Positions 51,611 through 55,826 of a DNA stretch of 64,000 nt are shown here, piece by piece. Position numbers and translations under genes: made by a program. This DNA is from Psychrobacter urativorans. GTDB taxonomy: Bacteria; Pseudomonadota; Gammaproteobacteria; Pseudomonadales; Moraxellaceae. A model generated the notes under the pieces. That model did not search any database, was not told the origin of the DNA, and worked only from the letters and a program-made list of their open reading frames with translations. Within the stretch, counting starts at the first letter, position 1. Each line of letters begins with the position of its first letter. The stretch spans positions 62,001 to 126,000 of the forward strand of contig NZ_CAJHBT010000001.1 in the NCBI RefSeq assembly GCF_904846675.1, given 5' to 3'.

Positions 51611-52966
51611 TTATTCTGGCGGCGTTTGTGATTTTTTCTCACGCATTACGTTTAGATATTCTTTTACTGCGCGGTTATGATCCGCCAAGCTATTGGTAAA
51701 CTTATGTCCACCGTTACCGGTCGCCACAAAGTACAGCACATCGCTATCGGCAGGATGCAAGGTAGCTTCAATAGAGGCCGCTGACGGCAACGCGATTGGC
51801 GTAGGTGGTAGGCCATCGATTTGGTAAGTGTTATAAGCTGTTTTTTCATCGATATCTTTGCGGCGAATATTACCTTCATAACGACTGCCCATACCATAAA
51901 TAATGGTCGGATCGGTCTGCATGCGCATGCCCATATTTAGGCGGTTATTGAATACTGCCGATACCAAGGGACGCTCTTCTGCCACGCTGGTTTCTTTTTC
52001 GATAATAGAGGCCATAATTAGCGCTTCATAAGGACTGTTATAAGGCAAGTTTGGCGCGCGATTCTCCCACGCTTTGGTGAGCGCTTGCTGCTGTAGCTTA
52101 TACAAATCCGTCAGCACCTGTTTATCCGTTGCGCCCTCGCCATAATAATAGGTATCAGGGGCAAACCAACCCTCAAGATTATGATTGACGATATAATCAT
52201 CACTATTAGTCACCGAGTCCGGCAACACGCCATTGAGATCAAGCGCCTGTGCGATACTGGCATTATCTGCATCATCGGTGAGTACTTCTTTTTTGATACC
52301 TTTGATATCACGTAGGGTTTGGTATAAGTCTTTTGAGGTTTTGCCCTCGATAAGTTGTACCTTAAGCATCGCCACTTTTGCGCCTTGCTCTAGCACTTGC
52401 AAAGCTTCGGCTATCGTTGGGTTCTCAGGTAATTGATAAATACCTGCGTGTAATGGCGCGTCCACTTGCGACTTAATATAAAGCTTAGCAATGCTGGCAG
52501 AAAACAGAGGAACATGCTGCCACTGCGGCAATAAGCCATAATAGGTATCACCCTGCTCAATTGTCACCATCTGTTGCGGTTGGTGAATGCGTCCAAATAA
52601 AGTCTGATATACCATCACCAACAAGAATGCGGCAATCAGCCCGAGCACCAGCAATATCTGATAGCCGCGCTGCATAAAAAATGACGGATTATCTGTTTTG
52701 TAGTGCCGTTTGGTACTTTGTTCATTGATGAGAGAGATATCAGTCACCGGTACTTTATCTTTATCTGCGTCCGCCCTACTCGCGCTATTATTATGATTTG
52801 CCTGAGTCTGCTCCGCACGCGCCTCGTCAGCCGTCACTGGGTCAGAAGTTAACGGCGTATCGGTACGTTCATTCGTATTAGCGCTCTCATTAACGGTACT
52901 GTCTTTTTTATTTGAATCGTTATCATTAGATTGATTAGGCGGCGTTTCGGGTGTCGGCGTGCTCAT
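51611..52966 (-). CDS. mltG: endolytic murein transglycosylase MltG
   Basis: MltG cleaves nascent peptidoglycan strands inside the chain and ends their growth. The 451-aa protein has a hydrophilic cytoplasmic N-terminus of about 100 residues, rich in Asn, Asp, Thr and Glu. One transmembrane helix follows (residues about 102-124), then a periplasmic YceG domain with MASIIEKETSVAEERPLVSAVF; the conserved EKE at 323-325 contains the catalytic Glu. The TDPTIIYGMGSRYEG signature follows. The cytoplasmic extension is much longer than in E. coli. Its usual upstream partner pabC lies 1.85 kb away, separated by the DpnI cassette. Confidence 0.95.
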   Translation of the reverse strand: MSTPTPETPPNQSNDNDSNKKDSTVNESANTNERTDTPLTSDPVTADEARAEQTQANHNNSASRADADKDKVPVTDISLINEQSTKRHYKTDNPSFFMQRGYQILLVLGLIAAFLLVMVYQTLFGRIHQPQQMVTIEQGDTYYGLLPQWQHVPLFSASIAKLYIKSQVDAPLHAGIYQLPENPTIAEALQVLEQGAKVAMLKVQLIEGKTSKDLYQTLRDIKGIKKEVLTDDADNASIAQALDLNGVLPDSVTNSDDYIVNHNLEGWFAPDTYYYGEGATDKQVLTDLYKLQQQALTKAWENRAPNLPYNSPYEALIMASIIEKETSVAEERPLVSAVFNNRLNMGMRMQTDPTIIYGMGSRYEGNIRRKDIDEKTAYNTYQIDGLPPTPIALPSAASIEATLHPADSDVLYFVATGNGGHKFTNSLADHNRAVKEYLNVMREKKSQTPPE

Positions 52967-53130
52967 GGCTACTCATAAGGCAGAAGTTTGTTAGAATTTA
53001 GCATTGAACTGTGGGATTTTCAATGTTATTTGCTCAGTCGTTAATAATTTGCTAATTAATGTCTTATTTAATTTAGCATTTAGCTTACTCTTTAATGTAA
53101 TTTTCTACCTCTATAACACGGCTTTTTACT

Positions 53131-53895
53131 ATGGATTTAAACTTTAATCAAACGCTGGCTGCTAACTATCGCTCACCATCACAAATCATTCGCGTGCTTA
53201 GTGAGGCGTGGGTGAAAGACAATGGCTACTGTCCTAATTGTAGCGCCCAGCCGTTAGCTGAATTTGCCAATAACCAACCGGTTGCTGATTTTTATTGCGC
53301 CAACTGTACCGAACAATTTGAGCTGAAAAGTAAAAAGGCTAAGTTAAGCAATATGATTAACGATGGCGCTTATGACACTATGATGCAGCGCATTAATAGT
53401 GAAGACAATCCCAGCTTTTTCTTTTTAACCTACTCTAAAGAACTCAGCGTAAATAACTTTTTAATCATTCCTAAGCATTTTTTTAAGTCCGACATGATTA
53501 TTAAACGTAAGCCTTTATCACCGACAGCAAAACGCGCAGGCTGGATCAGCTGTAATATTGATTTACGCAAAGTACCTGAATCCGGCAAAGTATTTTTGGT
53601 CAAAAACCAACAAGTGATATCACGAGATACTGTCACTCAAAAATTCCAGCAAACGCTATTTCTACGTGAGCTATCTGTACAATCTCGTGGTTGGACACTT
53701 GACGTTATGCAGTGTGTAGACAAACTACCTGAGCGTTTTACGCTTGCGCAAGTTTATAGCTTTAGCGATATTCTACAAGCTCTCCATATGAACAATAACA
53801 ATGTACACGCCAAAATCCGTCAACAGCTCCAAATTTTACGCGATAAAGGGATTATTGAGTTTTTGAGTCGCGGTCATTACCGAAAGACAATATGA
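53131..53895 (+). CDS. dpnC: DpnI-like methyl-directed restriction endonuclease
   Basis: A 254-aa protein, the same length as Streptococcus DpnI, which cuts GATC only when the adenine is methylated. Recognisable shared segments include PVADFYC, FELKSKKAKLS, NDGAYDTMMQR, PTAKRAGWISCNIDL and KIRQQLQILRDKGIIEF. The PD-(D/E)xK active site falls at the DpnI positions: Asp53, Glu64, Lys66. A zinc site is formed by Cys34, Cys37, Cys56 and Cys59. The C-terminal part (about 183-254) corresponds to the winged-helix domain that also reads methylated GATC. No methyltransferase is next to it. It lies between mltG (divergent) and a convergent unknown gene, 10 bp from its stop. Activity is inferred from the intact residues. 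Confidence 0.95.
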   Translation: MDLNFNQTLAANYRSPSQIIRVLSEAWVKDNGYCPNCSAQPLAEFANNQPVADFYCANCTEQFELKSKKAKLSNMINDGAYDTMMQRINSEDNPSFFFLTYSKELSVNNFLIIPKHFFKSDMIIKRKPLSPTAKRAGWISCNIDLRKVPESGKVFLVKNQQVISRDTVTQKFQQTLFLRELSVQSRGWTLDVMQCVDKLPERFTLAQVYSFSDILQALHMNNNNVHAKIRQQLQILRDKGIIEFLSRGHYRKTI

Positions 53896-53905
53896 ATCGC
53901 TCTAT

Positions 53906-54475
53906 TCATACTAAGCGCTTTTCAGGATAGCCTTTAGGTCTTAGGCGCCCTTTTGTATCAAAATAAGCGGGTGTAGTTAGTATTTTTTGCTCATCCCAAA
54001 GCGGCAAGCACTTGGTTGCAACAAGACGCTCATGATATCTATGAGGCGGATAATCCATCTCTAACTCATCATTGATAGGGAAAAAATGTTGAGCATCGTC
54101 ATCTAAACAAGTATAGCGTCTATTTTTCACATAGTTTTGCCACTGCCATAATAGCGCAATGGGCGTACGAACAGGTTTAGTGAATGCTTGCCTTCTCACA
54201 GTAATAGCGCACATGACATACTCGTAATGAGGTAGACGATGGACACCTTGCTCAATCACCTCCCTGCGTATATGCGCGTATTCAAACATCCCACCATAGG
54301 CGATATATTTTCTACAGTCCTGTAAATACATAACGCCGAACGCTAGTTTTGTATGCTGTGATAAATGAACAACTTTATTTGGTTTGTTCTTCGCTTTCCG
54401 GCAAATTTCATTAAATATCATCAATCGGCGAACATGCAATGGGATGATGGTTTGTTCATAAATAGGACGCATCAT
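53906..54475 (-). CDS. unknown protein of the DpnI cassette
   Basis: A 189-aa soluble protein, basic and rich in Arg, His and Tyr, with no signal peptide or transmembrane segment. AAGGAG lies just before an ATG pair at 54475/54472; the second is better spaced. Segments such as IYEQTIIPLHVRRLMIFNEI, YGGMFEYAHIRREVIEQGVH, LPHYEYVMCAITVRRQAF and the end AYFDTKGRLRPKGYPEKRL look like a folded globular protein, but I recognise no family or catalytic motif. It converges on the DpnI-like gene and diverges from the DpnD-like gene, so it is enclosed by the restriction cassette. It could be a regulator or accessory factor; this is inference from position only. Confidence 0.7.
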   Translation of the reverse strand: MMRPIYEQTIIPLHVRRLMIFNEICRKAKNKPNKVVHLSQHTKLAFGVMYLQDCRKYIAYGGMFEYAHIRREVIEQGVHRLPHYEYVMCAITVRRQAFTKPVRTPIALLWQWQNYVKNRRYTCLDDDAQHFFPINDELEMDYPPHRYHERLVATKCLPLWDEQKILTTPAYFDTKGRLRPKGYPEKRLV

Positions 54476-54613
54476 TTTCTCCTTTTAAAAAAGGATCATT
54501 GATCAACTGGCATCAAGACACAAGCCTGCGTAACAAAAGACGATCACTTCTTTTGATATCCTAAAGAACTTAAGAAAGATGACTAAAATCGTTTGTTGAG
54601 CTTAAGAGTAGAT
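54476..54613. promoter_or_regulatory. divergent promoter region with three GATC sites
   Basis: A 138-bp gap between the unknown gene (minus) and the DpnD-like gene (plus). GATC occurs at 54494-54497, 54501-54504 (within TTGATCAA) and 54542-54545, that is three sites in 52 bp, where about one per 256 bp is expected at random. GATC is the target of DpnI and of Dam. Confidence 0.5.
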
Positions 54614-54811
54614 ATGATGAACAAAAAGGTAAAGGTAGCAAAAACGTTTCACATCGAAATCGTCGAGACGTTAAGCCGGATTATTGACATTGTATCTGAG
54701 GACGAGCAACCCGCACTTTTAAAAGCGCAGGAACTTTATAGAAACGAAGAAGTTGTTCTAGATTCAGAAGACTATATAGATACCAAGTACAATGTTTTTG
54801 AACGGGAATAG
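54614..54811 (+). CDS. dpnD: DpnD/PcfM-family small protein
   Basis: A 65-aa protein matching the DpnD/PcfM family: KTFHIEIVETLSRIIDIVSE, then QELYRNEEVVLDSEDYIDTK. In Streptococcus, dpnD accompanies the DpnI gene dpnC; its role is not known, and relatives occur on plasmids and phages. The start at 54614 (ATGATG) is preceded by AAGAG. An in-frame TTG at 54593 is less likely. It ends 4 bp before the stop of convergent pabC. The presence of this family next to a DpnI homologue confirms that the cassette is a DpnI-type system. Confidence 0.82.
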   Translation: MMNKKVKVAKTFHIEIVETLSRIIDIVSEDEQPALLKAQELYRNEEVVLDSEDYIDTKYNVFERE

Positions 54812-54815
54812 ACCG

Positions 54816-55826
54816 TCAAATTGAGAAACAAATCTTCTCACCCGTCAGCAGGCTAAGCGCGGACACCGGAGTAATCCCACGCACCGCATTACAGAAGAAC
54901 ATCTGAAATAGATTTGGCAAATCAGTATCGGTAAGTGGTCGCTCGACAACCGGAGTAGCTGAAGCCGCAAAAGCATCCATAATCACAGCGCGCATGACTC
55001 CATGCACACCAGAACACTTAAGCGGCGGTGTAAACCACTGCGCTGGTGCTTGATTATCAGTTTTGGAGGGATATTGAGTTTGAGAGTTGAGCTGATAGAA
55101 CATATTGCTCATCGTACCCTCGACCCAATTGCCAGTCATATCACGAACCAGCCCTTCGCCCCATTCTCCACTTAAACCCTTGCCGCTAACCAATTGCAAT
55201 TGCGCCGCTTTGATACGCTGTAGCTCGCCACTGGCAAGGACACTATCAAGACGATTGAGGCTTTTTAGACCTGCCAAAGTTGGTGGTAAACAGGCCAGCT
55301 GGGCAGTTAGGCACACAGCAGAAATAGCCGGCTGCATGGGTACCGAGTGACCATTAAGCAGATGCCAATGTTTGATAGTGGCTATGGTCATGTTTGTTGC
55401 TTTTAGCCGAACCTCGCACTGACTACCAGCGGCACTTGCTGTAAAGCCATAACCGCGAACGCTTTGCGCAGCACGGGTGACGATTAATTTAAGCACGCCG
55501 TTTCGCATCTGCTGGGCATGAGATTGCAGGCTCATCAATAGCGCGTCACTATCAATATCGAGCTGCAAGGCTTGCGCATGCGAACAGAGACGCTGATGAT
55601 GATAGTCGTGCCACAATATCGCGCCATCGATGACGCCCATAGTGGTAAAGAATCCGTCACCATACGCCAGTCCCCGATTATCGAGGCTGAAGGTATTGCT
55701 TGAACTGTTGTTTAAACCGTTATTTAAGCTACCCGCATCTTGCGACCGCAAGCATGTCCAGCCATCACAACTGTCCAAATTATCATGTCTATCGCAACTA
55801 TCCGAGCTATCAAGGTCATTTATCAT
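54816..55826 (-). CDS. pabC: aminodeoxychorismate lyase
   Basis: PabC releases pyruvate from 4-amino-4-deoxychorismate to give p-aminobenzoate for folate. The 336-aa class IV PLP enzyme has DNRGLAYGDGFFTTMGV, GVLKLIVTRAAQSVRGYGF with the PLP lysine region, GEWGEGLVRDMTGNWVEGTMSNMFY and VHGVMRAVIMDA. The first 45 or so residues are an unusual Asp/Ser/Cys/Asn-rich extension (SSDSCDRHDNLDSCDG) without homologous sequence in the family. No clear ribosome-binding site supports the long start, but no later Met precedes the core. It normally sits directly before mltG; here the DpnI cassette separates them. Confidence 0.92.
   Translation of the reverse strand: MINDLDSSDSCDRHDNLDSCDGWTCLRSQDAGSLNNGLNNSSSNTFSLDNRGLAYGDGFFTTMGVIDGAILWHDYHHQRLCSHAQALQLDIDSDALLMSLQSHAQQMRNGVLKLIVTRAAQSVRGYGFTASAAGSQCEVRLKATNMTIATIKHWHLLNGHSVPMQPAISAVCLTAQLACLPPTLAGLKSLNRLDSVLASGELQRIKAAQLQLVSGKGLSGEWGEGLVRDMTGNWVEGTMSNMFYQLNSQTQYPSKTDNQAPAQWFTPPLKCSGVHGVMRAVIMDAFAASATPVVERPLTDTDLPNLFQMFFCNAVRGITPVSALSLLTGEKICFSI

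What the first reader, a model, noticed from the sequence alone, without database searches (positions are those of the whole stretch)
52967..54815. DpnI-DpnD type methyl-directed restriction cassette inserted in the pabC-mltG-tmk block of a gammaproteobacterium
The 254-aa protein at 53131-53895 keeps the DpnI active site (D53, E64, K66), the four zinc cysteines and the winged-helix C-terminus. A DpnD/PcfM-family gene lies 0.7 kb away. DpnI was described from Streptococcus; the usual tmk-mltG-pabC order is split here by exactly this cassette. No methyltransferase is present, so the host must leave GATC unmethylated or the enzyme would cut its own chromosome. Most enteric hosts and many phages carry Gm6ATC, so the cassette would bar such DNA.
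Basis: partly seen in the sequence, partly recalled or inferred. Interest (0 to 1): 0.85.

Follow-up and report, generated by a model that had tools for sequence, protein, structure and literature searches.

The report
Switchable GATC-restriction slot in Psychrobacter
This cold-loving bacterium carries an enzyme gene that should destroy methyl-marked foreign DNA, at a chromosome spot where related species hold either this enzyme or its mirror-image system, together with an unnamed companion gene and a conserved control region built around the very sequence the enzyme should recognise.

Summary
In detail: 53131-53895 encodes a full DpnI (m6A-GATC-dependent endonuclease) with active-site and zinc residues intact, and 54614-54811 a DpnD/PcfM protein, between mltG and pabC, in a genome with no D12 or N6/N4 methylase match. 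The reading as a two-gene insert must be changed. (1) The slot is genus-wide: 84 of 105 genomes of the genus (Psychrobacter) have DpnI, 83 of them readably in this slot. Twelve others hold here a DpnII-type gene set (Dam-family methylase, candidate restriction gene, regulator, DpnA-like methylase), five are empty, two hold other genes, two are unread. Slot states lie on the flanking-gene tree as if shuffled (18 changes), and five genomes keep a truncated dpnA scar: a pneumococcus-like DpnI/DpnII alternation on genus scale. (2) A third gene, orfX (53906-54475, minus), matches in 65 of 105 genomes and nowhere else searched. (3) The orfX/dpnD spacer holds a single-copy conserved element with GATC boxes 41 bp apart, in a genus poor in GATC. 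I propose, without proof, that it reads GATC methylation. Against strict incompatibility: four DpnI genomes also carry small contigs with DpnII-type genes. New variant of a known kind.

The parts
53131..53895 (+). dpnI: methyl-directed (G6mATC) endonuclease by family, PD-(D/E)XK domain with zinc cysteines plus winged helix, 254 aa
53906..54475 (-). orfX: conserved gene of unknown family, 189 aa (the second ATG, giving 188 aa, aligns with the start of the relatives), convergent with dpnI, divergent from dpnD; matches in 65 of 105 genus genomes, remnants included
   Evidence: no family
54476..54613 (.). orfX/dpnD divergent spacer with the GATC element
54494..54497 (.). GATC box at -39 (26 of 66 aligned copies have it)
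54501..54504 (.). GATC box at -32 (60 of 66 copies; 55 of 55 with intact orfX)
54533..54550 (+). core ACAAAAGACGATCACTTC holding the GATC box at +9 (54542-54545; 66 of 66 copies, but this box is part of the search pattern)
54614..54811 (+). dpnD: DpnD/PcfM-family small protein (ATG start; TTG at 54593 possible)
51611..52966 (-). mltG (YceG family), left border of the slot
54816..55826 (-). pabC (class IV aminotransferase), right border of the slot

Best explanation
The locus is the DpnI-type allele of a two-state GATC-restriction slot between mltG and pabC that is shared by the genus Psychrobacter. In the DpnI state the host leaves GATC unmethylated and DpnI should cut incoming double-stranded DNA with G6mATC. 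In the alternative state the slot holds a DpnII-type gene set (Dam-family methylase, candidate restriction gene, XRE regulator, a small protein of about 82 aa, DpnA-like methylase), which should mark its own GATC and cut unmarked DNA. Alleles replace one another by recombination in the conserved flanking genes, probably by natural transformation, and leave scars. orfX and dpnD are accessory genes of the DpnI state that share a divergent control region with GATC boxes. Shown: gene families, position, allele distribution, scars, element conservation. Inferred: enzyme activities and specificity (from family), route of exchange, function of orfX, dpnD and the element.
For: DpnI identity. Slot contents in 104 genomes (103 fetched, plus the window). 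DpnII-type genes: the D12 methylase of G027 is Dam family (TIGR00571 1e-82; nearest solved chain DpnM 2dpm, 1.5e-48); the restriction gene of G097 is Pfam DpnII (8.7e-92); a DpnA-like N6/N4 methylase is full-length in 12 of 12. No read slot holds both systems. A D12 methylase of the two slot types occurs in 4 of 84 DpnI genomes and 12 of 21 others (Fisher 2e-7, not corrected for relatedness); with every PF02086 match counted it is 9 of 84 and 13 of 21. Switching: the 12 DpnII-type genomes need 12 changes on an mltG+pabC tree, 11 forced by starred branches, shuffled mean 11.5; in 7 chosen pairs with opposite states mltG is 95.4-99.5% identical and pabC 89.4-95.7%. Scars: dpnA truncated from its start past the DPPY motif in 5 genomes with DpnI or a dpnI fragment; dpnI 5' remnant in an empty slot. 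Independent cases: 3 genomes of another genus of the family, where dpnI-dpnD lies between D12 and dpnA remnants (valS beside it), and gonococcus. ComEC present in the own genome. GATC at 0.46 of expectation in the window.
Against: Four genomes with uninterrupted DpnI also have a small contig with a D12 methylase plus a restriction-type gene (G007, G039, G064, G074), and two named complete Psychrobacter plasmids carry a methylase-nuclease pair of this kind. If these methylate GATC, DpnI there must be silent or the assemblies mixed. 14 of 83 aligned dpnI copies are interrupted or partial (some may be draft errors). GATC is not the only rare palindrome: GGCC and CCGG are about as low, and 4 of 20 other-genus controls have far less GATC. 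GATC scarcity is similar for both alleles (medians 0.45 in 77 and 0.51 in 11 genomes, no test made). The tree uses genes that border the slot, was made by the quick method, and carries long-branch warnings; its DpnI label includes decayed copies. The restriction role of five of the 12 slot nuclease candidates rests on position or weak matches, and the MutH-like match of six others is below the family cut-off. Activities were not measured.
Confidence: 0.85

Rival explanations
1. Methylation-gated version: the GATC boxes in the orfX/dpnD control region change expression when GATC is methylated, so that orfX and/or DpnD hold DpnI in check while a DpnI cassette enters a methylated (DpnII-type or Dam-positive) cell, until the marks are diluted by replication.
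For: Core element at 0-1 mismatch once per genome in 65 of 105 genomes, always just upstream of dpnD, no second place at that stringency. GATC at -32 in 60 of 66 copies, 41 bp from the box in the core. The -32 box is in 55 of 55 copies with intact orfX and 5 of 11 without (Fisher 5e-6, not corrected for relatedness). GATC density 16.5 per kb in 54 orfX-dpnD spacers and 10.9 per kb in dpnI-dpnD spacers without orfX, against 0.33 in dpnI, 0.34 in orfX, 0.10 in dpnD, 0.08 in the mltG-dpnI spacer. A further orfX copy has its own diverged element with the same spacing.
Against: Bases around the GATC boxes are as conserved as the boxes, so GATC may be incidental to a protein-binding site. The box at +9 lies inside the search pattern, so its 66 of 66 is partly built in. 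Seven DpnI slots, five with uninterrupted dpnI, have no match to orfX, dpnD or the element. No methylation or expression data. dpnI has its own upstream region almost without GATC. Species are related, so counts are not independent.
Confidence: 0.22
2. Plain defence cassette: orfX and dpnD are ordinary co-inherited genes and the element is a normal promoter or operator in which GATC has no role.
For: Flanking bases are equally conserved; DpnII-type slots also have a conserved operator-like stretch without GATC.
Against: Two fixed GATC boxes in a genus at about 0.42-0.47 of expected GATC, at one place; 112-bp windows with two or more GATC are 311 of 19,117 elsewhere in the fetched regions against 64 of 66 here (the 66 were chosen by a pattern that contains one GATC).
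Confidence: 0.6
3. Recent strain-specific insertion of a DpnI-DpnD cassette into a standard block.
For: The block is split exactly here, and empty slots exist in 5 genomes.
Against: 84 of 105 species-level genomes have DpnI, 83 readably in this slot; one empty slot keeps a dpnI remnant.
Confidence: 0.03

Closest known systems
Streptococcus pneumoniae dpn locus (DpnI / DpnII / DpnIII alternative cassettes; PMC3573125 and PMC12707154, passages read)
   Same: DpnI with DpnD, or DpnII-type methylase, nuclease and ss-DNA methylase DpnA, as alternatives at one chromosomal site
   Different: other locus (mltG-pabC), other phylum, alternation seen between species; extra antisense gene orfX and GATC element (whether pneumococcus has them was not searched); DpnII-type side adds an XRE regulator and a small unnamed protein and uses several unlike candidate restriction genes
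drg (dam-replacing gene) of Neisseria (PMC4269198, abstract and one results section read)
   Same: Gram-negative DpnI in place of a Dam-type gene; the gonococcal locus has a D12 3' remnant and a DpnA-like stretch behind drg
   Different: leuS site by that paper; no orfX, dpnD or element found in 5.8 kb around one gonococcal copy; 47.6% identical to the window protein
DpnI loci of another genus of the same family (L197-L199)
   Same: dpnI followed by a DpnD match
   Different: not at mltG-pabC; between a D12 5' remnant and a dpnA 3' remnant, beside valS in L198 and by look in the other two; no orfX match
GATC avoidance in genomes with DpnI-type enzymes (PMC4687349, passages read)
   Same: same under-representation; that paper proposed exchange between strains of opposite methylation state as one reason
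   Different: here both alleles sit in one slot of one genus with similar GATC scarcity (0.42 and 0.47 pooled)

Membership tests
DpnI (Type IIM, methyl-directed) | DpnI catalytic domain and DpnI_C winged helix over full length | tested here: met
DpnI (Type IIM, methyl-directed) | PD-(D/E)XK residues and four zinc cysteines | tested here: met
   aligned to 4esj
DpnI (Type IIM, methyl-directed) | host lacks GATC methylase | tested here: met
   no PF02086 or PF01555 match in the own genome; other methylase families not searched, methylation not measured
DpnI (Type IIM, methyl-directed) | cleaves G6mATC and not GATC | not testable with these tools
   -
DpnD/PcfM | PF14207 above its cut-off | tested here: met
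   38.7 bits against 25
DpnI/DpnII complementary restriction locus | alternative opposite systems at one site | tested here: met
DpnI/DpnII complementary restriction locus | opposite systems never in one cell | tested here: inconclusive
   not both in any read slot, but 4 of 84 DpnI genomes have a small contig with a DpnII-type pair
DpnI/DpnII complementary restriction locus | ss-DNA methylase DpnA in the DpnII state | tested here: inconclusive
   DpnA-like N6/N4 methylase in 12 of 12; action on single strands not testable
any known family, for orfX | match to a Pfam, NCBIfam, PADLOC or PHROGs model | tested here: not met
   only weak hits (best 0.016)

The most novel reading that the evidence does not exclude
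The DpnI cassette of Psychrobacter carries a methylation-reading divergent promoter (paired GATC boxes 41 bp apart) that controls two accessory genes, orfX and dpnD, one of which tempers DpnI when the chromosome is still methylated, so that a methyl-dependent nuclease can move into cells of the opposite methylation state without killing them at once.
Probability: 0.2. Interest if true: 0.85.

Novelty: new variant of a known kind. Interest (0 to 1): 0.62.

Why it matters
It shows the pneumococcal DpnI/DpnII alternation as a genus-wide, repeatedly switching slot in environmental Gram-negatives, with scars that record the switches, and it makes an old puzzle testable: how a nuclease that should kill methylated cells can be inherited in a mixed population. 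It also supplies a defined companion gene and a defined DNA element, linked to DpnD; I saw no statement of a function for DpnD, orfX or the element in the searches made.

Tried and rejected
Recent local insertion: rejected by distribution. Phage or plasmid origin of the DpnI cassette: no close match in the plasmid or phage collections (best 47.6%, in two chromosome-sized gonococcal records filed as plasmids; otherwise only winged-helix pieces, in 4 plasmids and 1 phage). orfX has none in plasmids or viral contigs (a pattern scan for close relatives). orfX as a known family: not met; in 369 genomes sampled from the class only the own genome matched. Structure of orfX: AlphaFold2 gave mean pLDDT 34.8 from 6 sequences, unusable. 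DpnD: a beta-beta-alpha-beta model at mean pLDDT 67 from 9 sequences; Foldseek gave no PDB match at E 0.001 or better. Promoter scan of the cassette: 5 hits against 5.2 in shuffles, no terminator. Separating selection on GATC itself from selection on a wider binding site: not possible from these data. Whether the four co-occurring DpnII-type contigs mean silent DpnI or mixed assemblies: not resolved.

Literature: Psychrobacter with DpnI and restriction endonuclease gave 2 papers, seen as listing and start of abstract only, neither about this by title. No row held Psychrobacter in the 20 listed of 114 or the 12 listed of 565. The DpnD/PcfM search (204 papers, 12 listed) showed only unrelated uses of the letters. 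PMC4263131 and PMC11037411: passages read.

Full report
Observation. The ORF at 53131-53895 is a complete DpnI: Pfam DpnI and DpnI_C, PADLOC type II methyl-directed restriction enzyme, phmmer match to solved DpnI over residues 1-252 at 2.9e-95. Active-site and zinc residues are present, and identical in 81 of 83 aligned relatives, the other two being fragments. The DpnD/PcfM gene ends at 54811. The pair lies between mltG and pabC. The genome (2.73 Mb, 63 contigs, 99.9% complete) gives no match to D12 or to N6/N4 methylases. The genus is inferred to be Psychrobacter: contigs of same-genus handles have the lengths of named Psychrobacter contigs that the window protein found.

Distribution. 84 of 105 genomes of the genus have DpnI; in a draw of 299 genomes of the family 93 do, 84 of them in the genus. 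I fetched mltG plus up to 10 kb outwards for 103 genomes and used the window for G000; G081 had no mltG match. In 83 of these 104, tblastn shows dpnI or a piece of it in the slot: 81 within about 0.5 kb of mltG and 2 (G039, G074) behind 5 kb of other genes; in G096, the 84th, the contig ends there. Of the 83 copies 69 are uninterrupted and 14 interrupted or partial. Of the 21 genomes without DpnI, 12 hold a DpnII-type gene set in the slot, 5 are empty (188-428 bp between the mltG and pabC matches), G104 holds an RCC1-repeat protein, G047 holds orfX and dpnD behind a YjbH-family gene without dpnI, and two could not be read (G081, G088). One empty slot, G026, still has the first codons of dpnI.

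The opposite allele. The 12 DpnII-type slots hold a D12 methylase, a candidate restriction gene, an XRE-type regulator, a protein of about 82 aa (81-89 by ORF) and a full-length DpnA-like N6/N4 methylase; the last three are found in 12 of 12. The D12 enzyme of G027 is in NCBI's Dam family, nearest solved chain DpnM. The candidate restriction genes differ: Pfam DpnII in G097; a type with a weak MutH match, below the family cut-off, in 6 of 12 by tblastn with the G027 copy; a DUF6996/6997/7226 protein in G044, with G080 and G094 put with it by length and position; and a 174-178-aa type in G056 and G066, whose G056 copy has a sub-threshold PD-(D/E)XK match. DpnA homologues at E 1e-20 or better are 12 full copies and 5 truncated ones, all in the slot, in 17 of 105 genomes. 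The truncated copies begin at residue 44-56 of the query, after the DPPY motif at 38-41 (its catalytic role is recalled), and lie behind dpnD; in G037 dpnI itself is a fragment. They read as scars of DpnII-to-DpnI replacement.

Switching. On a tree of mltG plus pabC proteins (104 rows, quick method, LG+G4) the four slot states need 18 changes against a shuffled mean of 18.4; the 12 DpnII-type rows need 12 changes, 11 of them forced by starred branches. Seven pairs with opposite states that I picked from the tree have the first 1,250 bases of the mltG end 95.4-99.5% identical; in one of them (G095/G043) the DpnI partner has only a dpnI fragment. The tree is built from genes next to the slot, so it may itself have been touched by exchange, and long branches were flagged. 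The same kind of replacement is seen outside the genus: in L197-L199 dpnI-dpnD lies between a D12 5' remnant and a dpnA 3' remnant (residues 131-261), beside valS (confirmed for L198); in gonococcus drg is followed by a short D12 3' match (E 4e-4) and a DpnA-like stretch at 52%. PMC11037411 (passages) mentions a frame-shifted methylase beside such a nuclease in Moraxella ovis.

Evidence against exclusivity. Four genomes with uninterrupted DpnI also have a small contig with a D12 methylase and a restriction-type gene without dpnA: G007 (its dpnI contig has the length of that of P. celer DSM 23510), G039, G064 and G074; plasmid-type genes are seen on them by look only, and two of the four contigs have overlapping ends. 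Two complete named plasmids, pYP14d and pA17P1, carry an annotated methylase and type II endonuclease pair. Five further DpnI genomes have other or partial D12 matches of unknown specificity (G010, G057, G070, G084, G086). So the two systems were not found together in the slot, but coexistence in a genome is not excluded.

GATC counts. GATC is at 0.46 of the Markov expectation in the window, 0.42 in DpnI-type flanks, 0.47 in DpnII-type flanks, 0.62 in empty-slot flanks, 0.38 in the two others and 0.77 pooled in 20 other-genus controls, of which 4 of 20 are at 0.22 or lower. GGCC and CCGG are about equally low in the genus flanks. PMC4687349 (passages) reported GATC avoidance in 38 of 42 genomes with DpnI-type enzymes and suggested exchange between strains as a reason.

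The third gene. orfX matches in 65 of 105 genomes, remnants included. In the fetched regions it matches in 62 genomes, and no match lies outside the mltG-pabC interval where both borders are read; it is on the strand opposite to dpnI and, where both exist, before dpnD. Minus-strand ORFs similar to it number 73 in 59 genomes, 14 of which have two; 58 genomes have one of at least 155 aa. NG86 dN/dS against seven relatives over nearly full length runs from 0.14/1.88 to 0.30/2.45. A Shine-Dalgarno-like stretch precedes the start in the spacers printed (by look). It has no family and no match outside the genus in what I searched. In G017 and G098 another antisense ORF takes its place (the G017 copy has no Pfam match).

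The element. Of 58 genomes with both orfX and dpnD matches, 54 gave a clean spacer; all 54 have 2 to 4 GATC sites, 136 in 8,251 bp or 16.5 per kb, against 0.08-1.73 per kb in neighbouring genes and the mltG-dpnI spacer; dpnI-dpnD spacers without orfX have 13 in 1,189 bp. Of the four left out, three have 2-3 GATC and one, with an orfX remnant, could not be measured. The core ACAAAAGACGATCACTTC is found with at most one mismatch in 65 of 105 genomes, once in each, always beside dpnD (59 exact, 6 with one mismatch). At two mismatches there are scattered hits elsewhere, as with the reversed control pattern. Among 66 copies with at most three mismatches GATC stands at +9 in all (this box is in the pattern) and at -32 in 60, a constant 41 bp apart, about four helical turns. 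The -32 box is tied to orfX (55 of 55 with intact orfX, 5 of 11 without), and a diverged element lies at extra orfX copies in eight genomes, with the same spacing in the three that were printed. At three mismatches or fewer it is absent from the 7 slots with dpnI alone, the 12 DpnII-type slots, the 5 empty slots and 8 other-genus DpnI loci searched of 9.

Mechanism. Best supported is a methyl-dependent restriction allele in a slot that flips between opposite GATC states, as in pneumococcus (PMC3573125, passages). The function of orfX, dpnD and the element is inference. Paired GATC boxes in the control region of the accessory genes, and not in front of dpnI, would suit a methylation sensor that protects a cell during the change of state; an ordinary operator that happens to contain GATC is the more cautious reading.

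Noticed in passing
DpnII-type slots, e.g. L099 (G027), and small contigs L187-L189: A conserved protein of about 82 aa, without Pfam or NCBIfam match in the G027 copy, accompanies the DpnII-type methylase in 12 of 12 slots and on three small contigs.
   Followed up: partly
DpnII-type slots, spacer between the XRE regulator and the small protein gene: A conserved operator-like stretch (CAATAAGT with flanks) recurs in 11 of the 12 spacers printed; the G020 spacer was cut too short to show it. None of the 12 printed spacers contains GATC.
   Followed up: no
L188 (G007), L189 (G064), L190 (G039), L187 (G074); plasmids pYP14d (L229) and pA17P1 (L230): Small Psychrobacter plasmids or contigs carry a D12 methylase and restriction-type gene, partly in genomes with intact dpnI.
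   Followed up: partly
L178 (G047), L177 (G039), L182 (G074): About 5 kb with a protein of about 1,020 aa (YjbH family in G047) lies between mltG and the dpn genes in three genomes; in G047 orfX and dpnD remain without dpnI.
   Followed up: partly
L125 (G017) and L116 (G098): A different antisense ORF of 164-166 aa sits where orfX usually lies; the G017 copy has no Pfam match.
   Followed up: partly
family controls L212, L214, L216, L226: Four of 20 other-genus control stretches have almost no GATC (0.00-0.22 of expectation).
   Followed up: no
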